This document shows, one piece after another, positions 29,895-61,008 of a DNA stretch of 64,000 nucleotides. Each line of letters starts with the position of its first letter. Positions within the stretch are counted from its first letter, which is position 1. The stretch is taken from positions 1,364,001 to 1,428,000 of the forward strand of contig JAKSGN010000041.1 of the NCBI GenBank assembly GCA_024180945.1. Reading direction: 5' to 3'. A model generated the notes under the pieces. It was given only the letters and a program-made list of their open reading frames with translations, was not told the origin of the DNA and searched no databases. A program made the translations under genes and the position numbers. This DNA is from Macrophomina tecta. Its lineage: Eukaryota > Ascomycota > Dothideomycetes > Botryosphaeriales > Botryosphaeriaceae.

Positions 29895-32410
29895 GCTCTG
29901 TGGTGGTCACTCCAAGAAGAAAAGACTGGGTATCGAGGAGCGGGGCTTGTAATGAGTGGCCTGGAAACAGCAATGCATAAGCTTGGCCGGGGGTTTTTTG
30001 ATGGGCAGCGCCAGGAAGTCCGGCACCTGTTTCTTTGGACGGGATATTCTCCGCAGATACAAAACCAGCAGGGGTTCCCGAATTTTAGAGGAGCGATGAT
30101 CTTGTCATGAAGAGGCATTGTTTGGCTGTCCTCCGGATCCACAGCCAATCCTGTGACGTGGATCAGACTGGGAAATGCCGACGATTGTGGTGATTGAGCT
30201 TCTGGAAGATGGGTTAACGTCATTTAGAGGGAATGAGCTTCTGAGAGTCCGTGTCACTGGTCTAAGCGAGGCGGGCCACACCTAAGTTAGAGTGTTCAAA
30301 TTCAGCCTGTTTTCCATATTGGATTATTTTCTGTGAATTTTGGCAAGCAGTGTATCTGGCATGCTGGGGTGGCATGCGTTACGCGATCGAGGTCGTGATT
30401 AAACGGCGCCCAGGACGTGAAAAGCGCTGTGTATCATGAAGCGGGAAACGGGCCTGAAGAGGCACTTTAACGAATCAAGTGCACAAGCTCCGAGCCACAG
30501 GCCTTGGAGGAGAGCATCCCGGCGAGAAAAAGTCACTGAAAGGCATGTGGAGTCAGCCGGGCCGTAATTGTGGACCGAATCGAACGAGGCTCTGGTAAAT
30601 CCGCAGGTGAATTGCGATAGCTGCTGATATCTAAAGTTTCACCAGCGGCTCGCCTATTGTTCCTCTGCGCTGGTCGCTTTTATTGGTAGGAGGGAGCGTT
30701 GAGCGAAGCTGTCAATCTATCTGAAGGTGTTGTCGGGAGAGGCCGCTGCTACAGGAGCGAGCAGTGGGGCCGCAGAGCCTCCACGTGGTTGGGGAAATTG
30801 CGCTGACGACTCAACATGAAACTCACCTCTCTCACCCTTCGCTTCGACAGTTCTCTGGCGTCCGTTGTTTCTCTCGCGATAACAGGGGTTTATGCCGGTT
30901 GTCGCGATAAGCGACTTATTCTCGCATCCACACGAAGAAGACTGCGGGTTGGAGTTCCCTTTGGCAATTTGGATATAAAGTCGACGAACGCCGCTTGCTG
31001 GATCAACCGTCCCAGGTTATCGGTACCTCTATTGATTTAAAGTATCCGAAGATGTTCTCGACTCAGATGCTGGTAATTATCGCATGGGTAGGTTTGCGCA
31101 GCCAATTGCAGTCAAAGAAACCGGCCGGCCTCGGAACACACAAGGCAGACAGTCGATCTGGTGTTAGACATCCGCCTTATGTTTCGAGGACTGTAGCACT
31201 TGCCCGACGTCCCGTGGTGTGCGAGTCTGCAGCCAGCAGTGGTGGTCGCGGCGTGTTTTGTTTGGTCGGATTCAGGGTTCCTTTCTACGCTGAGCACCGT
31301 CTGTTCGTTCGCTTGCTCGTTCACGTTACCCAATCTATTCCCGGCTGGTCACTTTGCCGCACGGGGAGTATTGGGCTCTGGCTACATCCTCTCAACTAAT
31401 TGTACCGGCAGAGGGTCGAAGAAGCCCTCGGAAGGAGAACACATCCGCTGTTCTGAAGATGCCCAGGGCATCCTCCACCGGCTGTGAGCATCTCCACTTA
31501 CCGGAGGACGTCGCACCTCCGAAACCCTTGTCCTTCACCCCAGCATAACTAATGAACATCAAAGTAAGCTTGACTCTTCCGCTCGAAGTCTGAAAAGTCA
31601 GTCCCTCTCGGCATTCGGGTAAATGCAGATACAATATGACTCGCGGCACCGGGAGTTCCCATCTGGTCGGCTAAAGCGTATGGTAGCATCCTCATCCACG
31701 GTCCGTCAGGCGCATACCATGAGAGCAAAACTGCTCATGGCCCAGCCACATCGCAGCGGAAGCAATTCTGTAGTAGGCGCGCATTTGTGATGCGGAACTC
31801 AGGAGTAAGCTTGCTGAACCGAAGTGAAGTTGTGTTTCAAGCCACAAAGTTTCTGTTAACCTTGAGCTACAAGCTTTGCGGTGCGCTGTTTTAATCAGAG
31901 CTTGCAGATCGTTCCTGGAAGATGGCTCGATAAACATAGATGTTGGCTCGGGATGCGCGGGAAGTCTGAAGTTGGGAAGCGTAGCGCGAAGCTGATCTGT
32001 TCTGCCAGTTTGCGTCTCACAGTCGGAAAACCTTCCACCGAGATCGGCCGGCTGACGTCAGTGAGTACGAGCGTGTGGCGGTGGCCGGGTCGCTTGGGGG
32101 TCTGGTACCTGGCGCGATACTGCATCGGACAGCCATGTTTTGCGGGGAAGGTAGCATCCACGTCCAAGTCTGTCAACGTCTGCGTTACCCCGGGCGGGGT
32201 AGCGTCACCATGCAGGGTTTCCCAACGCTAATCCTCTGCTTGGACATCCATGATCACCCGCAGCTACAAAATGCGCGCTTCTCCCCAATCGCCGACACAT
32301 ACGAGGTCCTTGCGATCGTCCTCGGCCCCGGACGTGCTGCAGCTGCAAGACATCTCCCGTTCACAGGCACCCTCTGTCGATCCTGCCTTCAGGATCTTCA
32401 TCTACCAAAC
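29895..32410. other. 2.5 kb divergent intergenic region
   Basis: This lies between the rhodopsin-domain gene (-) and the GH125 gene (+). Openings of 60-134 codons exist on both strands, but none carries a domain, a good signal peptide or a consistent splice pattern. A frame continuous with the GH125 gene extends upstream to 32075, but its translation is unlike protein. I regard it as leader sequence. Confidence 0.5.
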
Positions 32411-34052
32411 ATGCGCCAGGCTGCTCTTCTGCTCCCCGCCGCCTCGCTTTTGCTGGGCGGTGCAGCTGGCCAGGATTGTCCGGACTACTCCGACTACTCG
32501 ACTCAGAGACATGAGCCTTTCACCAATGGCACCTACCAGCTGCCCTTTCAGCGCCCTGTTCCGGCCTGCCGAACCTTCAACTCTTCCGGCGTCGAGGCGC
32601 TGATCGACCGCATGGAAGGCGTCATCGCTGACCCAGACCTCTACCGGCTCTTTGAAAACGCCTACCCCAACACGCTCGACACTGCAATCAAGTGGAAGGG
32701 GGTGGCAGCAAACAACTCGGAGGAAGAGCTCACCTTCATCATCACTGGCGACATCAACGCCATGTGGCTACGTGACTCGGCCAACCAGATGCAGTCCTAC
32801 CTGCCAGTGCTTAATGCCTCAGACTCACCGGACAGTATAGCCTCTCTCTACCGCGGTGTCATCAATCTCCAGGCCCGCTACCTGCTGACCTCGCCCTACT
32901 GTAATTCGTTCCAGCCACCAGTGGAGTCGAACATTGCTCCGGATACGAATCCTTCGGCCAGCGAGGACACCGTCAAGCCGGCGTATAGCAATTCCAGCGT
33001 GTTTGAGTGCAAGTATGAGCTGGACTCCCTGGCCGCCTTCTTGGAGGTGTCGGACAACTACTATAACGCCACCAATGATCTAGAATTCTTTGGCAAGTTC
33101 CAGTGGATCTCTGCTATCCAAGCTGTCCTGAAGGTTGCTAAGGACATGCAGACACCTACCTATGCAGCCGACGGCCAGGTCCTGGACTCTCCATACACTT
33201 TCTCCAGACAGACAAACCGTGCAACTGAGACGCTGGCTAATGATGGCCTTGGAAATCCCGTCCAGAATGGCACCGGGCTCATCCGGTCTGCATTCCGCCC
33301 CAGCGACGACTCGACCATCTATCAGCTATTCATTCCCGCCAACATGATGTTTGCGCGCTATCTCGAGACAGCTGCCGTAATTATGCAACAGCTGAGCAAC
33401 GCACCTACCGGCCTTGCTGAGGAGATGGGCAGCCTCGCGGCCTCCGTCCGTGCGGCCATCGAAAAGCACGGCGTTGTGCAGGGAGCAAATGGCCCCATCT
33501 ACGCCTTCGAGATCGATGGCTACGGCTCCACGACCATCATGGATGACGCCAACATTCCCTCTTTGCTCTCGGCGCCGTTCCTTGGCTACACGGACGTGAA
33601 CAACGAGGTCTACCAGAATACTCGCGACCTCGTCCTGAGCTCAGCCAACTCGTATTTCATGCGCGGCCCGGTCATCAACGCCGTTGGCGGGCCTCACGTG
33701 GGACCTGGCATGGCATGGCCGATGGCGAGCATTGTGCGCATCCTTACGTCTGATGATGAAGCGGAGATCACCAAGGCGCTGAAGGAGATCGTGAGCAGTA
33801 CGGACAGACTTGGGCTGATCCACGAGAGCATCAACAGCTGGAACCAGAGCGACTGGACACGACAATGGTGAGTTGGCAATTTTCCTCTTGGGTCACCGTA
33901 CTTTTCTCTTTGTCTCCGGCATAACCGCCGTTCTCGCACATGGCTGACGCAGAGACCACAGGTTCTCGTGGGCGAACGGACTTTTCGGTCAGATGATCCT
34001 GGATCTGGAAGCGCGGAAGCCGGAGATTCTGGGGCAGAGCTTCCAGGAATAG
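32411..34052 (+). CDS. Secreted GH125 exo-alpha-1,6-mannosidase (Mug157-type, DUF1237)
   Basis: Two exons (32411-33867, 33962-34052) give 515 residues. GH125 enzymes remove terminal alpha-1,6-linked mannose, in fungi from cell-wall or N-glycan mannan. A signal peptide occupies residues 1-20 ([15 protein letters not shown]). The hallmark [16 protein letters not shown] lies at about 111-126. Further family blocks are [73 protein letters not shown] and the C-terminal [13 protein letters not shown]. Several N-x-S/T sites agree with secretion. The intron splits the Trp codon of RQWFSWA. The start at 32411 is chosen because it begins the signal peptide. Confidence 0.93.
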
Positions 34053-34954
34053 TAATGTAGTCCTCTCTGGCAGGTAATTGATAATTCAACGCAGACGGTC
34101 CGTGATACCGTTTGTCGATCGTGGTGTTGTCCAGACCTCTCGAGCCGACCGGTGAACCATGCCGTGACTCAGAGTCCGCCATGTGGTAGGTTTCTTCCAT
34201 GCATGTGAAGAGCGTCGCGCCGGTGGAGGTGCGAGAGCGGACCCGGGGAGATGGAGAATTAGATCCAATTGGGGGGCCCACGAGGGCTAGAGCGGGAGAG
34301 CGGGCCCTCGCGATGGGCTGTTTATCAGGTACGACGCGGCCCAAAGAGCGGTTCCTGATATTATGGACGGTGGTGGCGGTGCGGGATCTCTTTCCCGACG
34401 GCGAGACGGTCGGGCACCACGAGCACGAATTATGGGACCACGCAGGGACTGAGAAAAGTCTGCATGGTGGCCCAGCAGCTGCGAAGACGAAGGCGAAGGG
34501 AGCAGTGTTGCGGTCGACGACGGAAATGGTTGCTCTTTTCGCGGCGGAGAGGGCAAGCGACCTGCTGGTGTTGGGTGGCGCGGGAAACAAAGCCCGAGAG
34601 GCAGCGGCTACCAGCCTTAGCGTGGCTGACTAAGGTCGAGAGGCTCTTATCGACGCGAAGCTCAACACCAATGCAGACCCTTGACATCACATCCCGGCGC
34701 CGTCGGTGGGGCCGCTGATACAATCTCTCATGAGAATTTTTTGACTTTCTCTGCGATGCCGGCTGGACATGGCCCGTCAGTCCACGGTGGCAACGGCCCA
34801 ACATGGCCCCTCCACCACTGCCACCGGCCCAGGACGGCCCATCAGTCGTCCTTTAAATACCTAATGCTCGCTCAAGCGGTTCCTCGCTGGGCCACCGATT
34901 CCTCGCCTGCTTCTCTGCCATCTGTCGCCGGCCTGAGAAGCAAAAGACTCCAAA
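34053..34954. other. Intergenic, upstream of MFS gene
   Basis: This 0.9 kb holds the GH125 3' flank and the MFS promoter. From about 34750 to 34850 there are repeated GGCCCATCAG/GGCCCGTCAG-like segments (near 34772 and 34837). Long openings on both strands show no domain. Confidence 0.5.
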
Positions 34955-36895
34955 ATGCACCACGACCACCCAACCCGCACGTCGCACGACGGCCACGGCG
35001 AGCCTCTCACTCGTCGCACCTCAGCTCTTGAAGAAGCTCCTACGCTGGTGCCGCCTGCCGGCCTTCCTGGTTTTCCCATCCGTCGGACGAGCACGGCCTC
35101 GCGTGTTACCTTCGAGGATGAGCGCCCCGAAGGTCTGGAAGCTCTGGCCAGGAGTGCTTCGGCCATCAGTGGGCACCACTCCCAATACAGGCGCGAATCT
35201 CTGGATAATGTGTTCGAGCTTCCTTCGATTCAGCGCCCAAAGCCTGCAAAGCCCGGACCATTCAGCACCATCCGTGAGGTGCCCTCTCAGCTAAACACCC
35301 CCTCCTCTACCCGACCGCCGTCTCCTGTTTCCAACAAGTATGAAATCTCGCGCCCTCCCTCGCCCGGGAGCTCCTCCGGAACCCGCACTCCTGCCGAGTA
35401 TGAAAACGGCGTTGGCCAGGCCTATCCAGAGATTGGCACCATTGCGTCATGGCGCGGGGCTATGATCCTGCTCTGCACATGCGGCGCCCAATTGATGGAC
35501 AATGTCTTCATGACTGGCGTCAACATCGCCCTGCCTGCCATCCAGAAGGATTTTGACGTTGACGGCGGAGATCTACAGTGGCTGATTTCTGCCTACACCT
35601 TGACCTTTGGTGGCTTCCTCCTCTTGTCTGGTGTGCTCGCCGACCGGTTCGGACGGAAGTTGATCTTTTGTATTGGCATGGCCACTCTCAGCATCTGGAC
35701 TCTAGCCGACGGCCTGGCCACCTCTTTCATCCAGCTGGCCATCTTCCGCGCTATCCAGGGGATCGGTGCTGCCATGACGGTCCCATCCGCTGTGGGCATT
35801 ATCAGCAACTACTTTGTCGCCAAAGACCGTACTCTTGCCTTGACCATCTTCGGAGCTGCCGGTGCTGTTGGATTTTGTCTCGGCCTCATCTTCGGAGGTT
35901 TCCTGACATCATCCCTCGGCTGGCGCTACATTTTCTATGTTGCTCTTTGCGTCACCAGCGTCCTGGGCATCGTTGCCTGGTTCGCCCTGCCGAAGGACAA
36001 GATTGATGGCAATTCGCGTCCCAAGTTGGATTTCGCGGGCGCTGGAATGTCTACGGCCGGCCTCATCCTGCTCAGCTTTGTGCTTTCCAGCGGCGGAGAG
36101 TATGGATGGGGCAAGGCTTTTATTATTGTGCTGCTCATTCTGAGTGTCGCACTGCTCGTTGCATTTACCTGGGTTGAGAAGAAAGTTTCCAACCCAATCA
36201 TGCCTCTGTCTCTGTGGAAGCTTGAAAACTTTGCAGCCCTGTGGATCGGAGGATTTGGTAAGTTCTACTCTCGATTCCGCCAATGAACAGTTACTAACGT
36301 CCATAAAGTTATGTACGGCGGTTACCAGACCATCATCTACTACACCACTCTCATTGCCCAAGAGATCAACCACCTGAGCGCGGGCCAAACTGCTCTCCGG
36401 TTCCTGCCCATGGGCTGTACCGGCTTCATCTTCTCCCTGTCCATGTCCCGCATGCTCGAATACTTCAATACCAAGTCCCTCCTCATCATCGGCATGGCCA
36501 TCTGTGCCATCGCTCCGGTTCCCTCAGCATTGATTAAGGACGGGGACATCAACTTCTGGAAGCACGTCTTCCCCAGCAGCATTCTGAGTGTAGCCGGAAC
36601 CACCATCGTCTACTGCACCATCACCGTCGTCCTGTTGGCCTCGGTGCCGGTCAACGTCAAGAGTTTGTGTGGTGGAATGATCAACACGGCCTTCCAGATC
36701 GGCAGTGGCGTGGGCCTGGCGCTAGCAAGCGCCATCGTGCAGGCTGTTGACACCAGCAAGGGCCACGGCCCGCTCCAGCAGTATGGCACAGGCCTTTGGT
36801 GCTGCTGTGGTCTGGCTGGAATAGGCATGATTGCTAGCATTTTTGGCGTAAAGAATGTTGGAAAGGCGGCGAGCGGCCCAGTTATGGCTCACTAA
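34955..36895 (+). CDS. MFS drug:H+ antiporter-type transporter, 14-helix (DHA2) family
   Basis: Two exons (34955-36257, 36309-36895) give 629 residues. The protein has an unusually long cytosolic N-terminus of about 165 residues, rich in Ser, Pro, Thr and Arg, with several candidate phosphosites. The membrane part starts at AMILLCTCGAQLMDNVFMTG, followed by the DxQWLISAYTL-type helix 2 start. The loop 2/3 signature GVLADRFGRKL and the RAIQGIGAAMTVPSAVGII block belong to drug-exporting MFS families, and PLSLWKLENFAALWIGGF precedes the intron. About 14 hydrophobic segments can be counted. The intron splits the Val codon after GGF. The substrate is unknown. It neighbours a secreted glycosidase but no biosynthetic genes, so general efflux is as likely as metabolite export. 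Confidence 0.9.
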
Positions 36896-45265: not shown

Positions 45266-46534
45266 TTAGAAGAGCTCATCCTCTTTCGCTAGCGTGTCTC
45301 TCGTCAGCTCTTCCAGGCTCCGCACGCCAGCAAGATGCATGTTCATCAGTAAATCTCCACACATCGCCCGAAGAACATGCCTGACCCCGTCCTCACCGCC
45401 AATTGCCAGTCCATAAGCGTAAGGGCGCCCAATGAAGACGCACTTTGCCCCTAGGGCAAGAGCCTTCATGATGTCGGCTCCACATCGCACTCCACTATCA
45501 AACATAACCTCCAGCTTTTCCCCCACGGCATCTACTATCCTTGGCAGCATCCCAAGGCTACTGACCCCGCCATCCTGCTGCCGACCTCCGTGGTTGCTGA
45601 CCACAATGCCCTGGACGCCCGCCTGCGCCGCCTTCTTAGCATCGTCAACACTCTGGATTCCCTTAAGGACAATCGGCCCATCCCAATGCTCTTTCAGGAA
45701 CTCAATGTCCTCCCAGCTGTGAGAGTGGCCAGGGAAAATGATCTTTGTCCATTCTTGCGCGGCTTTTCCAATGCTGTCGCCAACGTCGGAGTGCTCGTGA
45801 TCCGGAGTCTCACCGATGTCGATGCCGTGCTTTTCCTTGAACCTCTTGCGGAATGCAGGGTCCGTGAAGCCGAGTTCCACTCCGATTCTGTCGGCGTGGA
45901 TAAAAGGGTTGTATCCGTTGTCCATGTCGGAAGGCCGCCATCCGAGAACGTATGTGTCCAGGGTCACGAAAAGCGCGGTATAGCCTGCGGCTTTGGCTCG
46001 GTTGAGCAGAGAGATGGTAACATCATCATGCTCCCGGCTGGGCCAGTAGAGCTGGTACCACCGCGTACCGTTTCCATTTGCCTTGGCCACGTCCTCGATG
46101 CTGGTGCTGCTCGCGGTGCTGAGCGTGTATGGAACATCAACCGATGCGGCAGCCCTGGCGGCAGCCGCCTCTCCGGCCGGGTTGAAGATTTTTTGGACAC
46201 CGATTGGAGCGATGGCGATCGGGAACCTCAAACTCTCGCCAAGCACGGTGGTTGCGGTGTCGCTGAATAATTCGTTGCCGTCTGCGTCCTTGCGACTTGG
46301 GACCAGCCGCTTCGGAATGATGGAGTAGCGGGAGAATGCGGCAAGGTTCTTCTGGTACGTCTGCCCAGCTCCAGCGTTGCCGTGAATATACCCCCACGAC
46401 TGGGCTGAGAGCGTCTTTTCGGCCATGACCTCCCATTGCGAGGACTGGAAGGTGAAAGGCGGGCGTGCTGAGTGCAGGCCGGCCTGGAAAACCGCCTGTT
46501 CGTACGCGATGGGATCTGACTGCGGCTGCGCCAT
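45266..46534 (-). CDS. FMN-dependent alpha-hydroxy acid oxidase (lactate 2-monooxygenase-like)
   Basis: A single exon encodes 422 residues. The family oxidises L-2-hydroxy acids with FMN, and the closest type appears to be lactate oxidase/lactate 2-monooxygenase. The FMN-site segments seen are PIAIAPIGVQ, the YTLSTASSTSIEDV block and WYQLYW. FVTLDTYVLGWRPSDMDNG and the phosphate-site region FDSGVRCGADIMKALALGAKCVFIGRPYAYGL also match. The catalytic His lies in IVVSNHGGRQQDGG. No mitochondrial cytochrome b2 domain is present, so electrons probably go to oxygen. The N-terminus lacks a clear presequence, and the C-terminus (EDELF) lacks a clear peroxisomal signal. Confidence 0.92.
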   Translation of the reverse strand: MAQPQSDPIAYEQAVFQAGLHSARPPFTFQSSQWEVMAEKTLSAQSWGYIHGNAGAGQTYQKNLAAFSRYSIIPKRLVPSRKDADGNELFSDTATTVLGESLRFPIAIAPIGVQKIFNPAGEAAAARAAASVDVPYTLSTASSTSIEDVAKANGNGTRWYQLYWPSREHDDVTISLLNRAKAAGYTALFVTLDTYVLGWRPSDMDNGYNPFIHADRIGVELGFTDPAFRKRFKEKHGIDIGETPDHEHSDVGDSIGKAAQEWTKIIFPGHSHSWEDIEFLKEHWDGPIVLKGIQSVDDAKKAAQAGVQGIVVSNHGGRQQDGGVSSLGMLPRIVDAVGEKLEVMFDSGVRCGADIMKALALGAKCVFIGRPYAYGLAIGGEDGVRHVLRAMCGDLLMNMHLAGVRSLEELTRDTLAKEDELF

Positions 46535-49500
46535 GCTTGTGAAAATCTCTTGGCTGCAATGCTTGTGTTGTCGTCGTGCTCTGCATTTATAAAATTACTT
46601 GCTGGGTCAGTTCACCGAGCTATTGTACGTCATCTCGGCCTCTCTCATGGCGTCATCGCTTGCGCTGACGCGTTATCTAGCAGGTTCGGCGAGCGCATCT
46701 TTCCTGGTTCCTCTCGGTCAACATGCTGACCAACTAGCCGACTATGAACGCCCTGGGTGCTGACAGATGTGAGCACCACTTCGAGCCTGCACGGGCAGTT
46801 GTTTGGTGTTGAGCGTGTTGCAGCCGATCAGCGTGACAAATTGCCGGAAGCAGAAACGCCGACCGCAACCCCCTCTCATCGGACGGACGGCCTTGCAGCC
46901 TCACGGACGATGCTTTCTGGAAAGCTTCATCTCCAACCAGCGCAATGGAATTGAACCGCTGACCTGGTTCGACTTTGGTGTGTGATACGGTCCTTGGTGG
47001 CTGGGTCGATTCTGCTTCCCGGTTTTCCTCAACGATTGCTGACCTCTTGCGGTCGCAACAGCCGGCGAAAGCAATGCAACATTCATATCAGCGGCCCTTC
47101 ATCTCCTTTTCTTCGCGGATACTTCGCAAGATGGCATTGAATTAGCCTCGTGATCGCGGCATCCGATCAAGCGTTGATGTCTATCGATTTTCGGCGAGTG
47201 ACATTCTGGGGAACCGAAGGCTGGTGAGTTGAAGTCACTTTGCTTTTCTGCCTTTAAGCGTTCCTTCACCGGCCGTGTAAGATGTTTCATCCTGGGATCT
47301 CTCACAGGTGCACATCGATCGGCCAGCTTCTGTCGCCTACACCGCTGCACGCTGTCTACGGTATCCATGTCGAACCTTTCTATCGCGTAGCGTAAGCGCG
47401 GAAACGGCTAAAGAGGAAGACAAGGCAGTGCGAGACGAGCTAGTGTAACCAGTGCTGTGAGCTAATGAGGCTGTTCTTCTATAATTGAAGCCCCCTAAAT
47501 GGGGTCGCTCGATCAGTTCTGCAGGGCGTCGGAAAGTGAGACGCGACGTGGAAGCCTATGCAATTCATCTAGATAATGAAGCTAACATCGAAACAGGAGA
47601 CGCGAGGTGGCGGCATACGCAAGTTTTTCTAGGGGGGGGGGTTGGGAACGAAGTGAGACTTGACTCCGGAGAAGCTTCTCGGAAGTCTGGAGAAGCAATA
47701 TGGCTTGCGCCAGTTCCTGAAGAACTTGGACAACATTTCCTTGTGCGGCGTTCACTTCGCGCCCAACCACCGATGAGCTTCCGTCGACGTGATTGATTTT
47801 TTTTTTTTTCTTTTTGAAAACCTTGTGGACGAGGTAAGAGAGATCGCCGGGTCTCCGTCAAATATGGTCCAGCCGCCGGATTAGCCTCCGCCGTCGATGC
47901 TGCAGACTCCGAGTCTGCAATTTGTCCCCTCCGTCATGCCTGCGGACGGTAGTCCGAGGGCTACCGAATCATGGAGAGAGCGGAAGAGGCCTTCAACGCC
48001 GGGGCCGTGGTGGTGGAGCCGAAGGGTAGGCGAACATTTATTAATCGAGTGAGTCAAAGGTAGGGTGAAAAGGCGGGAGGATAAAACACAGCTCGGCGTC
48101 CCTCCAGCCGTTGACAAGACTGAAGACCGACGGCGATTGCGCATGTACTGATACGACACAGGGGTTCACAGCCACAGAACACGAAGAAACATGCAGAGGT
48201 TTATCAGACAGCGGGGTTACAATGGCCGAGCAGGCCGCTTTTGGCCGTGGTTGGGCGTTCGGCCCGTGCCCTTCGGGGGTTGACCTGGTAGAGCCTGCCT
48301 CGGTGGGAAGGATAGTTCGCGCTTAGCCGGGAGGGGTCGGGGCGAAAGGCGGGATAGGCGGATCCGCCCGGAACTAGCTGCTGGTAGTATCCTAGTATCA
48401 CCATGTCTTGGCATGGTGTTGAAAAAGCTTACCTGGCTATGCAGGGTGCACAATTCCAAGGCCACCACTTACGAAACATCCCTTCCTGCCTTCTGCATCA
48501 ACTTGATTGCTGTTTTGAGAGCCCTGCATGAGCGTCACTTGCAGTCCGAGCGCTCGGCCGTCAGGCAGTTGCAGATGGTCTGCAGCGCGAGAGGGCGCCG
48601 AGCGTAGAGCCGCCATCGCAGCCCAACATCGTCGCAGGCTGTCCGGCTGATGGTCCCTCAGAGGGCCCCCGTGGATGGCAGGAGTGGGTGTGCCGCTGCG
48701 GATAATTTGGGTGCAGGACGAATCAGGCTGAGGTGAGATAGACGACACTGAATCAGATGCGCGCATAGGCGGTGGGCTGACTGCTCGTAGCCGCTGCACT
48801 CGGACTCTTGGCCCGCCATCACGATCCCACCGTCTGCCAAGGGGGCCTCCCGCCCGAAATACGAACAGCAAACTCCGGGGGATAAGCTGGAGTCCGAAAG
48901 GGTAGCGGTGGTGGGGGCATGAAATGAGCAGCCGCGCTGCCGGGACAAGGCGGCCGATAAGGACCCGTTCCAAGGCATGCAACAGCAACGAAATGGCGGG
49001 CTCAGAAGGGTTTTGTGGCTCGCTGCTTTCTGGAACTGGTCTCATTCCGGCGGCTGAGACAGCTGCTCGTCATACCGCGCGGGGGACGCTTGCGCCAACG
49101 CCATGATGACGCACGAGCCGGACTTACCCAAACAGGCAGTTTATCTGAGGGTGTGCTGAGGGGGCTATCGATAAGATTCTCTTGCGATGTTGGCGCCGGG
49201 ACGCGTGGATCCTACTCGTGGCTGAAGGGCCGAGTGGCCGGAAATGCAGTCAGGGCAGTGCGGATCGGGCGTTTTCTTTGTGTTTTCAGCCCCCCTCTGC
49301 GTCAAATTGCCTCCGCCGCACCCGGACGCCGTTGTGGAGAGAGCAGAGAAGATGCCGGCAACGCCTCCCTGCGCATGCTCCGCAGAATCTCTAACGAGCG
49401 CTGCAATGGAACCCAACTAATTGTGCCAAGGAACGTCGGTCGAGCGCGCGCTCGCAAAAGAAAGACCTTGCATCGCCGCCCTATCACATCCCTGGCCCCC

Positions 49501-54895: not shown

Positions 54896-55024
54896 CTACA
54901 TCTTCGCCTTCACCGGGGGAGCGGCCAGCGGCAATTCCGTCCAGGCCTCCTCCGTCCAGTATCGCAGGTACTTGGCCATCTCGTCCTGGCTGACCGGCTT
55001 CGGGTCCCTCAAGCTCGGCGCCAC
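54896..55024 (-). pseudogene. Severed 3' coding end of the NRPS-like reductase gene
   Basis: On the minus strand this reads 42 codons and a TAG stop, in the same frame as the host gene on the other side of the transposon. It starts VAPSLRDPKPVSQDEM and ends AAPPVKAKM. The translation continues the host sequence ALDLTESRK exactly where the family normally continues (LDLTES.KVAPSLR...). It is cut off from the rest of the gene by the 2.7 kb hAT element plus one copy of the 8-bp target duplication. Confidence 0.92.
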
Positions 55025-55032
55025 CTTTCTGC
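55025..55032. repeat. Left 8-bp target-site duplication of the hAT element (CTTTCTGC)
   Basis: It is identical to 57758-57765 on the other side of the transposon. Eight bases is the hallmark duplication length of the hAT superfamily. Confidence 0.95.
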
Positions 55033-55083
55033 CAGACATCCCAATAATAAATAAATACATAATATTGACATATTCTTATGTAT

Positions 55084-55130
55084 TCATTGGCAGATCCTAA
55101 TATTATTATCGATTGCTAAGCTTATCAATA
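55084..55130 (+). repeat. Subterminal direct repeat, left copy, in the hAT element
   Basis: An ATTGGCAG...CTATATTATTATC-like block ending AAGCTTA-CAAT recurs in the same orientation at about 57664-57710. It lies about 50 bases inside each end. In hAT elements transposase binds short subterminal motifs, and these may serve that role. Confidence 0.65.
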
Positions 55131-55134
55131 ATTA

Positions 55135-57221
55135 TTAATATAAAACTGAAGCGCCATGCATGTCGTCGTTGCCGCCAGCAATATCCATGACCTTACCATC
55201 TACTGCCACGTAGACTTTGCGGACCAAGTCATTCTTCACCCAGTTGCTCAGGCATTGAAGCTTCTCGATAGTATCAGGCGAGAGCCGTGCCCTGTCCCAA
55301 GAAATTGTCCGCCTTGCGCAAGAGAATACCCGTTCCGGATCGTCGGACATCGCCGGCACACTTAGTATGTCAATGGCCAATTGGTGTAAACGTGGATACT
55401 CAATCCTCTGTTCTTCTCGACACCACCATTCAAGCGGTGTTTTGGTCGTCATAGGTCTTGGCGGAGAATTGACGAATTTTTCGAATTCATCCTCATCTCC
55501 GGGTTCATCCAAGACACTCATTGACTGCTTGATACGCTCGTACGGTGTTACTTCCCGTCGTTCGTCGTTCAGCCGAGCCGCGGACTCCGACGGGAGTGGC
55601 CGGTCCTTGTACTTCGCCCAATGCTGCCGTGCACCAGCAATAGCGGTCTGCCTCCATTCCTCTGCCCAGTGGCGGTCAAGGTACCTCCGGCGCTTTTCTG
55701 GATGGAGCAATAATGCCGTGGCATATATTGGGTTTCTGTCACTCTCTTCATAATACTTCGAGAGAACCCACCAACCCATGTGAATGGAATGAACCATACG
55801 CGCGTTGCTGGCGTATTTGCCCTGCTTTAACATCAGTCCAGGTCTGGTAATCGATCGAGCCGTCCATGGCTTACCTTGGCATTCTCAAACTGCATGAAAA
55901 GAATATCCATATTCTCTAGCACCTGATCTATTGATGCCCACTCCATTTGCTGCTCCAAGGTCGCTTGGTAAAACGGCTGCAAGAACTCGTGAGTCATTTT
56001 GAGTACTTGCCAATCATCATGTGTGAGGATGTCGTCTTCCAGCTCGTTGTGGTATTGGTTGAGGAATATTGACAATGGACCCTCTTGGCTGATAGCCGCA
56101 TCAAGCAACTTGAACCATGAGTTCCAACGGGTGATATTGTCAATTCCAAGCGCCTTTTCTGCAATGTCATCCCATGCATCGTTGCGCACTGTGGAATTAC
56201 GGATGAACACCGCAATGTTGTGGAGTTTACCCATTGGGCCGATGCTCCGCCAGCCGGCAGTGTCATGGCGTTTCTTGCGCCTGTCGTGACTCTTGTGACA
56301 AGTGTTCGACTGAATTTGGTCGTGTAACGCGTCCGCAACTGTTACATCATTTACCTCGTGTTGCGCCTGCGCAATTGCGGCCTGCAGAGCGTCCTCACTA
56401 GTTGCAAAGAGAAAGGCTTGAAGGGACAAGTTAATGATGTGGCCGGCACACCGCGTTCGAGAGGACACTGGGTCAAGTGTAAGGCCGTACTCTTGCGACA
56501 GCTCAACAGCAAGTTGGCGGAGACAGGTGTCATTCTTTGCGTCATTGTCCCCAGTGAAGTAGCCGATTCGGGGCGCTAAGTGGTACTGTCGGATAATCGT
56601 CATCAAGTGAGGTGCCATAGCCGTGCCGGCGTGAGAGCGGCGGAGGTTTGGTAGCCCTAGCAATGCTTTCCGAGGTTTGTAGGCCTCGTCAACCCATTGG
56701 GCGTGAACAGCGATATAGGCCTTCCGCTGAGGAGAAGACCATACGTCCATAGCAATGTGTACGAGGCTCCGGGCACGTTCTAGCCATTCCTTTACGGATT
56801 GTTGATGCGCATCGTAGGCCCTATCCAAGTCCGCCGCAACTGTGCTACCGGAATCAGTTAGGAACTCTTCAACGGCAGGGTTTATCGCGGCCAGAAGTGC
56901 CTGGTATTCCGGCCAGGTTACGAAGTTGAGCGGTAAATGTTTATGTGCGGATAGCAACATCTGTGCCTCTCGAAAGGCATCGACATTGATTACACTCCGT
57001 AGAGTGTTCATCTCATTCTCCCTGACTTGCTGCAGCCGCTTGCCGGTTGTTCTTGCGAAGGCATTTTCGATGGCTAGTTGGCGCCTGTTTTGAGATTTTG
57101 AATCCTCTCGAACAAGTATGTGATGAGCCTTCTCGAGATGATAGCGGGCGTTGCCAGATATGTGGGTTGACCAGGATGGATTGCGACAACGCGTGCAGTA
57201 GTGAAGTAATTTCCCGCTCAT
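55135..57221 (-). CDS. hAT transposase (one upstream nonsense codon)
   Basis: Two exons (57221-55875, 55821-55135) give 677 residues from the first usable ATG. The N-terminus holds the zinc-binding end of a BED finger (YCTRC, then SGNARYHLEKAH). The catalytic-core landmarks DVWSSPQRKAYIAVHA and TRCAGHIINLSLQAF are present. The C-terminal hAT dimerisation region is complete (PLEWWCREEQRIEYPRLHQLAIDILSVPAMSDDPERVF). The frame continues 69 codons upstream of this ATG to an ATG at 57428. That extension includes the WDHF start of the BED finger but has a TAA at 57345-57347 (codon 28), probably from CAA. Either translation starts downstream of the stop with a shortened BED finger, or the copy is crippled. 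Confidence 0.87.
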
Positions 57222-57428
57222 AGTACGTGGCTCGTCGCCTTGAGCTTCTCGAAAGTGATCCCATGTTGATGTGGCTCTCAGTTTCCGTCTCTTGACCGTA
57301 TGCTGAGCTGACGATGCCTCGGGTTCTGACAGTGTGCTGGCAACTTATGAGGCACTGTCAGAGGGTACCACGGAGGAAGAACTTGACGGGGCATTGGATT
57401 GGGGCAGTGAGGATATGTTGACGTCCAT
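57222..57428 (-). pseudogene. N-terminal extension of the hAT transposase broken by a TAA
   Basis: This is in-frame continuation of the transposase: a Ser-rich start (MDVNISSLPQSNAPSSSSS), the stop at codon 28, then a basic stretch (VKRRKLRATSTWDHF) that supplies the first aromatic residues of the BED zinc finger. A single C-to-T change at a CAA codon would explain the stop. Confidence 0.75.
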
Positions 57429-57663
57429 TGTCGTGTGTAGAGATATGTCGCTGATGTATTACGAACTGCGTACTTGCAACGTGACGGGTATGGCGAGGCA
57501 GCAGTTTCGGTTGCTAGGAGTTACAAACATTGGAGTTCACCTCCTATCTAGAGGCCTGATAAGCAGTAATATGCGTACAAGACTGCAATTTAATCTGAAA
57601 CACTCTGGGGGAATTGGCGCTGGAAAATAGTGGGCCTATATTATTAATAGTTAACAATATATA

Positions 57664-57710
57664 TTTATTGGCAGCGTCTATATTATTATCCTTATGGAAA
57701 AGCTTAACAA
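57664..57710 (+). repeat. Subterminal direct repeat, right copy, in the hAT element
   Basis: This is the partner of the repeat at about 55084-55130, in the same orientation, with scattered mismatches and one or two small gaps. Confidence 0.65.
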
Positions 57711-57742
57711 TAAATATGCCCTTAATAATAAATATATATTTA

Positions 57743-60700
57743 TTACTGGGATGTCTGCTTTCTGCTCTCCGTCAGGTCGAGTGCAACGAGCGACAACGCC
57801 GACTCGCCTAACTCGTCCACATCTGCCCCATCAGTCTTGCCAGCAGCGGCAGGAGAAGCAGGTTGGGACTGCTTCTCCTCACCATATACAACCCTGAACC
57901 AGTCGATCAACTTAATGGGCGGATTCCTCACCGGATCCCTCTCGCTCGCCTCCAGCCTCCGCACCCACTCCGGCCCGCTCAGCGTCTCGAACCTCAACCC
58001 GGCCCGCCTCAGCGCCGGCAAAAACTCGCCATGCCACGACACCGTGCGCGGATGGCACACATGGTACACGTCCAGCCCCTCCCGGGGCGTTCTGGTGCCA
58101 TTGCGCCCCTCCTCCATCGACACGCCGGCCAGCTCCACCACCGCCCGCGCCGTGACGTCCACCGGCAGCCACGACTGCGCGTCGCGCCCCTCAGGCGCCA
58201 GCGGCAGCGCGCCCACCGTCCGCGCCGCCAGCACCGTCAGCGGCACCGCCTCCTTCGCGTTCCACAGCCCGTGCTGCGAGTCGCCCACGATCTGGCCGAT
58301 GCGCAAGACGCGCGCGGGCACGCCCGCCTTCGCGCTCGCCGCCTCGCAGATCCTCTCGGCGCACCACTTGGACCGCGAGTAGCCTATGGGGCCCGCGGCG
58401 GCGAGGGGGTAGAGGCGCTCGCGGATGGGGCTGTCCGGAGAACGCATGACGGCGCCGATGGTGGAGATGAAGGTGAAGGTGGGGAGGGGGGTGAAGGGGG
58501 AGCGCAGACAGAGGGCGAGGAGGTGTTGCGTGCCGGCGATGCAGTGGCGCTCGAAGCTCGCGAGGGCCATGTTGAAGTTGACGGTCCAGGCGTTGTGGAT
58601 GACGGTGGTGGCGGTGGAGGCGATCTCGTCGTAGGTCGAGCGCGGGAGCGCGAGGTCCTGCTGGCTGAGGTCGTAGGGCAGGGCGACGATCTTGGCCGTT
58701 TGGGCGGGCGTGAGGGCCGCGAGCAGGCGGGCGTTGCGCAGGGCGGCGTGCGTCCGGGTGAGGGCGGCATTGGGCGAGGCGGCGCGGACGAGGCAGTAGA
58801 CGCGCGAGACGTGGGGCGTTTGGAGTAGCGTGTTGAGAAGATGGCGGCCGAGGGATCCTGTGGCGCCGGTGAGGACCTGCGTGGTGTTGTTGTGAGCTTG
58901 CAGTTCGCGGAGCGTCGTACACATGGGCCGCGAGATGGGATGAGAGTACTTACCACGACCTCCTTGTCCGGTCTCTTCGTAGACTCCTTCCTCACGACAG
59001 GACGGAACTGCGAGTACTTCTTCACAAGCTCCATCTCGACTTCATCCTGCGACCGGTCCGGCGATGCTCCGCGCTTCATATCGATGATGAACTGTGCCAG
59101 GCGTGCCACACTCGGATTCTCAAAGGCAACGTTAACAGGCAACTGATCCTCACCGACGCCGAGCTCCCTGGCCAGTGAATTGCGCGCCTGGGTCGCCTGC
59201 AAGGAGTCCATGCCGAGGAGGAAGAAGTCAGTGTCGTCAGTGAGTTCGCTAGCGTTTTGCAGCTGCAGCGTTTCGCACACCGTCCGGCGCACCAGATCCC
59301 TGACCCCTGCGACGGTCGAGTACAGCTCCGGCGGCTTCTTAGCCTCCGCAGCGACCCCGCCCGCGGCCATGCGCTCGTAAAAAGCATCGATATCGGCGCG
59401 GAACTGTTGGACAAACTGGGCGCGCTTGAGCGTGAGCTTCTCCGTCACCGGGAAGGGCGTGCCGGCCTCCTTGACGATGACAGCGTCGCGGGAGATGCGC
59501 GCGTACGCCGGCACGACCCGGTTCGCGGCCTCGAGCCGCGGCCAGATGCGTGCGACCAGCTCGTGCTTGGGCACGTCTTTCGCCTCTGGCTCGGGGATGA
59601 CGATCATGCCCAGGTAAGCGCGCTGTGCGCCGAAGCCGACGGCGATCTGGACGTCCGGGTGCTGCTTGACTGCATCCTCGAGCGGGACCGGGTTGGCCTT
59701 CTCGCCGTTGACCAGCACGATGGTGTCGTCCTTGCGGCGCACGAACTTCCACTTACGCGGGTCCGTGGGGTGGCGTGCGAACAGGTCCTTGGTGTCGTAG
59801 CTGCCGTCCGACCGCGTCGAGAGTACCTTGCTCTCGAGACCCGGCTTGACGACCAAGTGGTAGAGGTTGTCGTCCTCCGCCTTGCGCTCGAACTCCAGGT
59901 AGGGCTCCGCGTGCGGCAGCGGGACCAGCCAGTTCCACTGGTCCTTCGACCGAGCCAACAACCCGCCTGTCTCGGTCGCGCCGTACGTGTTGCTGACATT
60001 GACGCCTGCGGCGACCAGCCTGTCTCCCAACTCGTCAGGACAGGCGGAGCCGCCGAACTGCACGACGGCGAGGCGCGCCATCTTCTCGATGCCCCCCGGT
60101 GTCTCAGCCAGCAACTTGAGGGTGTACGGCACCGTCGCGATAGACGTGCACTTGGATGCTTCTACGGCCGTGAGGACGTGCGGCCCGGTGATGGGAAGGT
60201 TTGCGTTCACGAGCGAAATACGATTTCCGAAAACGATCGCTTGCACTAGGTTCAGGGCGCCGAACCCATGGTAGAGAGGCACCGTTATGAGAAGGTCCCG
60301 GCCTTTTGGGTGCATCTCGGGGCTCCCTAAGAAGTCCACCCACGCGTCCCACAACTGCGGCACCGGCTTCGGCAGGCCAGTTGAGCCCGATGAATGTATT
60401 ATTGCGCCCGGGTGTTTCCGCTCCCTGTTCCAGTCGAACTGGATGTCCAGGGGTCGCACCGTATTCGCGAAGGCAGGGTTGAAAAGGTAAGTGCCTTCGA
60501 ACATGGGCACCACGGCGAGCAAGCCCCCCGTGGCGCTCTGTACCTTATCCATAACCGGCTGGTATCGGCTTTGCACCAACACTGCCTGGCCTGGAAACAG
60601 TAAGCAGTTTTATTCCTAATTGGTCGGTGTAGTGCAAGAAGGTGGCCCACATTGTGTCTTCTCAACGAGATGTTTGTAGCCGGCATCCGAAAGTCGCGTA

Positions 60701-61008
60701 GAGAAGAGAAGAGTTGTCAAACCCAGGCGCTGGGCAGCGAGAAAAGTGACGACATATTCGAGGCTGCTCACTCCGAGGAGACCGATAACTTTTGGTGGGT
60801 CGTTCGAGCTTTTGCGCAGCGCTCGCTCAGGGAGTACGCTGGCATACAAGGTTGCTGCGACTGTTATCATGCGGGCAAGCTCCGTTCCGCTGTAGTCTTT
60901 GAATCCCTCATTGCCCTTGGTTGGGTACGCAATGACAGGCAGCGGCTGAGCACCCGGTTGGCCCATCCTTTCGAGACGCTCGCCGAATGCAAGGGAGCGG
61001 GAACCCAT
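57743..61008 (-). CDS. NRPS-like adenylation-thiolation-reductase enzyme, 3' end truncated and capped by a hAT transposon
   Basis: Three exons (61008-60651, 60590-58954, 58876-57743) give 1,042 residues. Such A-T-R enzymes activate a carboxylic acid as AMP ester, load it on a carrier thiol and reduce it to an aldehyde. There is no condensation domain. Visible motifs are the AMP-binding loop HSSGSTGLPKPV, NTYGATETG, the carrier site LLGMDSLQ (Ser about 582), the Rossmann loop TGATGSLG (about 668-675) and the YSRSK catalytic pair (Tyr831, Lys835). After ALDLTESRK the reading enters the hAT terminal repeat, adding Q-T-S-Q and a stop. The native last 42 codons are stranded at 54896-55024. The reductase core is complete, so activity may persist. 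The substrate is unknown. Confidence 0.9.
57758..57765. repeat. Right 8-bp target-site duplication of the hAT element (CTTTCTGC)
   Basis: It is identical to 55025-55032. On the minus strand it encodes the last host residues (part of Ser, then Arg-Lys) before the transposon begins. Confidence 0.95.

What the first reader, a model, noticed from the sequence alone, without database searches (positions are those of the whole stretch)
54896..61008. Recent hAT insertion inside the last coding segment of an NRPS-like reductase gene
The element has 20-base terminal inverted repeats and a perfect 8-bp duplication (CTTTCTGC). Joining the two flanks across one copy of that duplication restores an unbroken frame: ALDLTESRK continues into VAPSLRDPKPVSQ and ends in a stop 42 codons later. 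This shows the pre-insertion allele directly. A transposon caught splitting a secondary-metabolism gene with both halves undamaged implies a young, possibly polymorphic insertion.
Basis: seen in the sequence. Interest (0 to 1): 0.9.

Follow-up and report, generated by a model that had tools for sequence, protein, structure and literature searches.

The report
Young hAT transposon burst in Macrophomina
A jumping gene has landed in a metabolic enzyme gene of a soil fungus; it belongs to a young burst of about a hundred near-identical copies that was probably acquired from another fungal class and seems to have reshuffled the fungus's chromosomes.

Summary
A 2725-bp hAT element (window 55033-57757) with near-perfect ends and a perfect 8-bp duplication (CTTTCTGC) sits 42 codons before the stop of an A-T-R NRPS-like gene. 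Its orthologue in another Macrophomina phaseolina isolate is uninterrupted exactly there and has the same C-terminus, so intact alleles exist.

The larger finding is genomic. The element has about 105 copies in this 54-Mb genome; 102 have both exact ends, and 40 compared copies differ by 0.11% on average. 64 of the 102 have matching target duplications. The other 38 do not, yet their halves match one another 27 times, forming six closed pairs, one closed triple and five open chains: the signature of recombination between copies, with the element at inversion and translocation breakpoints. Misassembly is not excluded.

The window copy has an early stop codon in its transposase; 35 of 40 sampled copies are open there. 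The transposase is about 91% identical to one of Fusarium oxysporum, and all other listed rows with an organism name, bar one Macrophomina fragment, are hypocrealean, suggesting horizontal transfer.

The element is a new member of a known kind; the breakpoint network makes it interesting.

The parts
55033..57757 (-). hAT element, 2725 bp, transposase on the minus strand
   Evidence: TIRs and TSD; about 105 near-identical copies in the same genome
55025..55032 (+). target-site duplication CTTTCTGC, left copy
57758..57765 (+). target-site duplication CTTTCTGC, right copy
55033..55066 (+). left terminal inverted repeat (first 21 bases 20/21 matched)
   Evidence: pair I1; exact 21-base left end found 107 times in the genome
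57724..57757 (-). right terminal inverted repeat
   Evidence: pair I1; exact 21-base right end found 103 times in the genome
55836..57344 (-). open frame of transposase exon 1 (BED-type finger judged by eye); the exon ends inside it at ...FENAK, where an intron starts
   Evidence: relatives spliced at the same place (P0004, P0006)
55138..55884 (-). open frame holding transposase exon 2 with hAT dimerisation domain PF05699; the exon starts inside it, near ...GKYASNARM
57345..57347 (-). premature TAA stop near transposase codon 28 in this copy
   Evidence: the site is open in 35 of 40 copies; relatives P0003, P0004 read through
57758..58876 (-). last exon of the A-T-R gene up to the insertion (thioester reductase domain)
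   Evidence: PF07993 E 5.7e-45; 330 of 373 aligned positions identical to P0123 652-999, one 25-residue gap included
58954..60609 (-). A-T-R gene, open frame of the middle exon: AMP-binding, AMP-binding_C_3, PP-binding
   Evidence: splice sites judged by eye
60605..61008 (-). A-T-R gene, first exon region (3' end approximate)
   Evidence: exon 3' end judged by eye
54899..55030 (-). detached C-terminal 44 codons of the A-T-R gene (2 within the duplication, 42 beyond)
   Evidence: 41 of 44 identical to P0123 998-1041
54896..54898 (-). original stop codon of the A-T-R gene

Best explanation
A hAT element inserted by cut-and-paste transposition into the last exon of an A-T-R (adenylation-thiolation-reductase) NRPS-like gene of a Macrophomina isolate, duplicating 8 bp and cutting off the last 42 codons. 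The shortened protein loses the final segment of the reductase domain and is probably inactive or impaired (inferred). The insertion is one of about 105 copies from a burst so recent that compared copies differ by about 0.1% and show no RIP bias. Shown: the insertion, the intact orthologue elsewhere, copy number, near-identity, and interruption of this copy's own transposase. Inferred: (a) the transposase was supplied in trans, or the stop arrived later by gene conversion; (b) the family came horizontally from a hypocrealean fungus or a shared donor (about 0.8); (c) copies recombined with one another, producing inversions, translocations and losses that left 38 copies with mismatched but largely mutually matching target duplications (about 0.7).
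For: TIR and TSD at both ends; hAT dimerisation domain; uninterrupted orthologue P0123 with matching C-terminus, similar C-termini in Botryosphaeria P0124 and Neofusicoccum P0125. The C-terminal part lies inside a solved homologous domain: 8aep aligned to P0123 residue 1023, past the insertion point at 999. Copies: 107 exact left and 103 exact right ends, 102 two-ended copies; 40 aligned copies, mean pairwise 3.1 differences in 2725 bp. Two other copies give each other's DNA-level empty site with one 8-bp target copy (L004, L054). Swap network: 27 matches among the 38 two-ended mismatched copies, 28 with one one-ended contig copy (C16), against a mean of 0.155 (max 3) in 200 letter shuffles of the halves. 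8 of 21 links join copies on the same contig against 1.8 expected, p about 5e-5. In 2 of 10 tested TSD-matched flank pairs, long open frames (201|192 and 108|98 codons) continue in strand and phase; in the 11 present-day pairs the shorter side never exceeds 54 codons. 9 of 66 pairs of shared variants fail the four-gamete test, so copies seem to exchange sequence. A published PacBio/Hi-C comparison of two other M. phaseolina isolates reports inversions and translocations (PMC6829926, abstract and passages).
Against: No reads were available, so the swapped junctions could be assembly errors, and polishing errors could also mimic mosaic copies. Contig C16 repeats the C20 sequence beside one swapped element, and contigs C16, C24 and C25 begin within a few bases of an element end: the assembler had trouble at this repeat. 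The assembly holds no TTAGGGx4. 8 of 10 tested TSD-matched pairs showed no long shared frame (best of these 39|51 and 35|38 codons), and two present-day pairs reach 54 codons on the shorter side. Eight of the nine sampled copies that carry two shared minority variants together have matching TSDs, so mosaics mostly arise without crossover. Six mismatched copies match no other. Horizontal transfer rests on protein identity; no donor DNA was available and the only host yardstick is one gene.
Confidence: 0.85

Rival explanations
1. The mismatched target duplications are assembly errors: the assembler crossed between near-identical 2.7-kb repeats, and the chromosomes are not really rearranged.
For: C16 is redundant with C20 at a swapped copy; three contigs start within a few bases of an element end; no telomere repeats in the assembly. 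Local inversions between nearby inverted repeats are also a common assembly error (recalled), so the within-contig enrichment is not exclusive to biology.
Against: 64 of 102 copies are correctly bounded, so most were resolved. Links are enriched within contigs (8 of 21 against 1.8). Six copies match nothing and five chains stay open, as expected if products were lost. Rearrangements between isolates are published from PacBio and Hi-C (PMC6829926).
Confidence: 0.28
2. Aberrant transposition (transposase acting on ends of two different copies) caused the rearrangements rather than homologous recombination.
For: Alternative transposition of this kind gives inversions in maize (PMC8225341, seen only as a search listing with abstract start).
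Against: Each breakpoint holds one element with both ends and exchanged duplications; exchanged duplications with chimeric copies are given as the mark of ectopic recombination (PMC2775673, passages). Copies show mosaic variants, though they are too similar to prove each swapped copy chimeric.
Confidence: 0.06
3. The insertion is old and fixed in the window's own lineage, and P0123 represents another lineage or species.
For: P0123 is 97% identical over the searched part, so it could come from a diverged lineage; no other Macrophomina protein is named in the 120 listed rows.
Against: Perfect duplication; the window copy differs from the majority of 40 copies at a single site.
Confidence: 0.1
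4. The hAT family was inherited vertically and lost elsewhere; no horizontal transfer.
For: Patchy distribution alone can come from loss.
Against: About 91% protein identity to Fusarium oxysporum (another class), while the host A-T-R protein, the one yardstick used, is only 69% and 63% identical to the Botryosphaeria and Neofusicoccum proteins. In a 32-row tree the window copy sits inside a hypocrealean group (97/96 support for the 4-row group, 100/99 for the 16-row group).
Confidence: 0.15

Closest known systems
hAT transposase of Fusarium oxysporum formae speciales (P0003, P0004, P0005, P0006; source names include 'putative AC transposase')
   Same: About 90-91% transposase identity, same start region, same intron position, same C-terminal domain
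   Different: Different fungal class; ends, copy number and any burst in Fusarium were not examined here
hAT elements of Macrophomina phaseolina MS6 (136 hAT reported, PMC3477038, passages; P0067 is a fragment of this transposase)
   Same: Same genus; P0067 matches window residues 243-499 with few substitutions once gene-model differences are set aside (by eye); RIP not observed there
   Different: Family counts only; no TSD network described in the passages seen
Galileo (P superfamily) inversions in Drosophila buzzatii (PMC2775673, passages)
   Same: Exchanged target duplications and chimeric copies at breakpoints, explained by ectopic recombination
   Different: Different superfamily (7-bp duplications); there three inversions, here at least eight exchanges are needed for the closed sets alone (inference)
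Styx in Zymoseptoria tritici (PMC10853768, passages)
   Same: Reactivated fungal element linked to a chromosomal translocation
   Different: 6-bp duplications; seen in pedigrees near breakpoints; no genome-wide duplication swapping in the passages seen

Membership tests
hAT superfamily | 8-bp target-site duplication | tested here: met
   64 of 102 two-ended copies match exactly; of the 38 that do not, 32 share a half with another
hAT superfamily | short terminal inverted repeats beginning CA(G) | tested here: met
   CAGACATCCCA... at both ends; the CAG rule is recalled
hAT superfamily | C-terminal dimerisation domain PF05699 | tested here: met
   E 1.5e-15
hAT superfamily | intact full-length transposase in this copy (needed for autonomy, not for membership) | tested here: not met
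   premature stop at 57345-57347; the site is open in 35 of 40 sampled copies
hAT superfamily | catalytic DDE triad | not tested
   residues not mapped
A-T-R NRPS-like reductase | adenylation, carrier and thioester reductase domains in order | tested here: met
   PF00501, PF23562, PF00550, PF07993; TIGR01746 matched below its cut-off (191.8 of 213.35)
A-T-R NRPS-like reductase | complete C-terminus | tested here: not met
   cut at residue 999 of P0123 by the element
Ectopic recombination between transposons | exchanged target duplications in reciprocal copies | tested here: met
   six closed pairs, one closed triple
Ectopic recombination between transposons | swapped copies individually chimeric | tested here: inconclusive
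   copies too similar; mosaics seen mostly in TSD-matched copies
Ectopic recombination between transposons | junctions confirmed in reads or other isolates | not testable with these tools
   no reads or eukaryotic relatives held
Horizontally transferred transposon | phylogeny incongruent with hosts | tested here: met
   protein tree of 32 chosen rows; host classes of the named genera are recalled
Horizontally transferred transposon | divergence below that of host genes (synonymous sites) | not testable with these tools
   no Fusarium DNA held; only one host protein compared

The most novel reading that the evidence does not exclude
A single, recently invading hAT family, probably received from a hypocrealean fungus, has acted as a genome-wide set of crossover points in Macrophomina. 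Its target-duplication barcodes record the chromosome reshuffling as a permutation that can be read directly: more than a third of two-ended copies (38 of 102) mark exchange or loss breakpoints, and this explains the inversions and translocations reported between isolates of a fungus with no common sexual cycle (the last point is recalled). Redundant contigs such as C16 would then reflect junctions still mixed within the culture.
Probability: 0.5. Interest if true: 0.78.

Novelty: new member of a known kind. Interest (0 to 1): 0.6.

Why it matters
M. phaseolina isolates are reported to differ by large inversions and translocations, with no mechanism stated in the passages I read (PMC6829926). 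Near-identical elements with exchanged 8-bp duplications at breakpoints would give that mechanism, date it to after the burst, and let ancestral junctions be read from single assemblies. A transposon this young also gives isolate-typing markers and a clear case of element movement between fungal classes that share soil and hosts (shared ecology recalled).

Tried and rejected
Considered and rejected: chance 8-mer duplication (one search shows the 8-mer is common, but 64 of 102 copies are bounded by matching 8-mers); MITE-like or deletion derivatives among copies with both exact ends (98 of 102 are 2721-2726 bp; the other four are 2709, 4038, 5468 and 5591 bp; derivatives with altered ends were not sought); RIP (12 of 42 base changes are C to T or G to A, 3 of them in CA context); a frameshift-dead transposase at the 55836-55884 overlap (relatives splice an intron there).

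Led nowhere: no telomere repeats; the gene piece beside the unpaired copy at C3:1514003 had no Pfam match and no homologue among the 7997 candidates scored; structure prediction was not run, and the solved-structure alignment served instead. Trans-mobilisation of the stop-carrying copies is not proven: the stop allele occurs in 5 of 40 copies, with other variants in conflicting combinations, so gene conversion could have spread it. Sampling limits: 41 of about 105 copies were read in full and 40 compared (L055, with a nested insert, was left out of the variant count); flanks next to both exact ends were read for all 102 two-ended copies by pattern. Of 120 listed transposase relatives I put 31 in the tree. 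Flank frames were tested for 10 of the 27 TSD-matched links.
Full report
WHAT IS THERE. The window lies in contig C35 of a 54.1-Mb genome in 37 contigs. The A-T-R gene's best match is P0123 from Macrophomina phaseolina (97% over 98% of the query), followed by Botryosphaeria dothidea (69%) and Neofusicoccum parvum (63%), so the organism is most likely a Macrophomina; its species and isolate are not established. Size and contig number match none of the three assemblies tabulated in PMC6829926 (51.3 Mb/60, 49.8 Mb/18, 48.9 Mb/1506; section 5 read). Window 55033-57757 is a 2725-bp element with inverted ends, bounded by CTTTCTGC on both sides.

THE INTERRUPTED GENE. The minus-strand gene carries AMP-binding, AMP-binding_C_3, PP-binding and NAD_binding_4 domains. 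I searched the pieces on either side of the element apart and did not join them, because the product is unknown and might be a toxin. The upstream piece aligns to P0123 up to residue 999, the downstream 44 codons to residues 998-1041 with 41 of 44 identical; the two-residue overlap is what an 8-bp duplication in frame would give. P0123 runs through without interruption, so an intact allele exists. The C-terminus is similar in P0124 and P0125 and shows conserved positions in the consensus of 25 chosen proteins; it lies within a solved homologous reductase domain (8aep, aligned to P0123 residue 1023). The present gene would end ...ESRKQTSQ, four foreign residues into the element. Loss of the last segment of the reductase domain probably impairs it; this is inference.

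THE ELEMENT. The transposase lies on the minus strand with a hAT dimerisation domain. The two open frames overlap because of a short intron after ...FENAK; relatives P0004 and P0006 are spliced at the same place, while P0003 and P0028 are annotated as reading through it. This copy has a premature stop near codon 28 (57345-57347). Of 40 copies compared, 35 are open there and 5, including the window's, carry the stop. Fusarium relatives P0003 and P0004 read through. So the window copy is probably not autonomous; either the transposase acted in trans or the stop came later by conversion.

A BURST. The DNA search scored 40 of 116 candidates, all 40 full length and rounding to 100% identity. Exact-end patterns found 107 left and 103 right ends, pairing to 102 two-ended copies; 81 are exactly 2725 bp and 98 are 2721-2726 bp. 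Forty compared copies differ by 3.1 bases on average (0.11%), and by 1.6 from the majority sequence. Changes are not RIP-like, in line with the report that RIP was not observed in M. phaseolina MS6 (PMC3477038, passages). Copies L004 and L054 lie in copies of the same repeat and give each other's empty site with a single 8-bp target.

THE SWAPPED DUPLICATIONS. Of 102 two-ended copies, 64 have matching 8-bp duplications (two of these, on C10 and C36, share flanks and are a segmental duplication) and 38 do not. Among those 38, the right half of one copy equals the left half of another 27 times, involving 32 copies; counting one-ended copies there are 28 matches, against a mean of 0.155 and a maximum of 3 in 200 shuffles. 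They form six closed pairs, one closed triple on C30, and open chains of 5, 5, 3, 2 and 2 two-ended copies; six copies match no other mismatched copy (one of the six shares its left half and left flank with a TSD-matched copy). Two closed pairs lie on one contig in opposite orientation, 27 and 42 kb apart, as inversions should; four join different contigs, as reciprocal translocations should. The closed sets alone need at least eight exchanges (inference). Links join the same contig in 8 of 21 cases against 1.8 expected (p about 5e-5). In 2 of 10 TSD-matched flank pairs, open frames of 201|192 and 108|98 codons continue in strand and phase across the pair; in the 11 present-day pairs the shorter side never exceeds 54 codons. 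Nine of 66 pairs of shared variants fail the four-gamete test; eight of the nine copies with two shared minority variants together have matching duplications, so sequence exchange also happens without crossover. Together this points to recombination and conversion between copies. The window copy itself has matching duplications and is not at a breakpoint.

THE WEAK POINT. I had no reads. Contig C16 repeats, without a difference over the 1998 bp compared at its far end, the sequence beside the swapped copy at C20:285643. Three contigs begin within a few bases of an element end. This may mean repeat-induced misassembly or a mixed culture. Independent support is indirect: two other M. phaseolina isolates, sequenced with PacBio and Hi-C, differ by inversions and translocations (PMC6829926; abstract, passages and section 5 seen). 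I hold real rearrangement at about 0.7.

ORIGIN. The transposase exon is 90-91% identical to several Fusarium oxysporum proteins; of the 120 listed of 206 matches, every row with an organism name is hypocrealean (classification of the genera recalled) except P0067 from M. phaseolina MS6; many rows have no name and 86 were not listed. In a 32-row tree of chosen rows the window copy falls inside hypocrealean sequences. The one host gene compared shows 69% and 63% to Botryosphaeria and Neofusicoccum. Horizontal transfer is the simplest reading; direction and donor are open.

PRIOR ART. Exchanged duplications as the mark of ectopic recombination are described for Galileo (PMC2775673, passages); a reactivated fungal element at a translocation is described for Styx (PMC10853768, passages). 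The searches listed no paper that, by title or abstract start, describes such a network for a fungal hAT element; the library is partial, so this is not proof of absence.

Noticed in passing
G000 C16 and C20:275427-285642 (loci L193, L194); C25 and C31 (L195, L196): C16 (12.9 kb) repeats sequence beside a swapped element on C20 (100% over 1998 bp compared); C25 is 99.7% like a C31 flank over 1832 bp.
   Followed up: partly
locus L055 (C36:317480-323204): An element copy carries about 1.3 kb of nested insert; its flanks match those of the C10 copy, a segmental duplication.
   Followed up: no
G000 C14:44042 and C31:1686570: Two places share both element ends but are 5591 and 5468 bp long and, where sampled, hold another hAT-like coding sequence (by eye).
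   Followed up: no
loci L186, L187 (C5:2734515-2735714 and 2779410-2780609): An open frame of 201|192 codons is split between the ends of a 42-kb inverted segment; by eye a secreted protein with KR repeats. Not joined.
   Followed up: partly
G000 contigs C29 and C37: Lengths are exactly 3,215,000 and 3,345,000 bases, suggesting scaffold editing in 5-kb bins (inference).
   Followed up: no
G000 whole assembly: No TTAGGGx4 anywhere, so no contigs capped by the usual telomere repeat.
   Followed up: no
window 31985-33871, 34937-36286, 45266-46594: Neighbouring open frames match GH125 mannosidase, an MFS transporter and an FMN-dependent dehydrogenase.
   Followed up: no
window 57809-57883 against P0123 residues 982-983: The M. 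phaseolina gene model lacks 25 linker residues present in the window frame; perhaps a gene-model intron.
   Followed up: no
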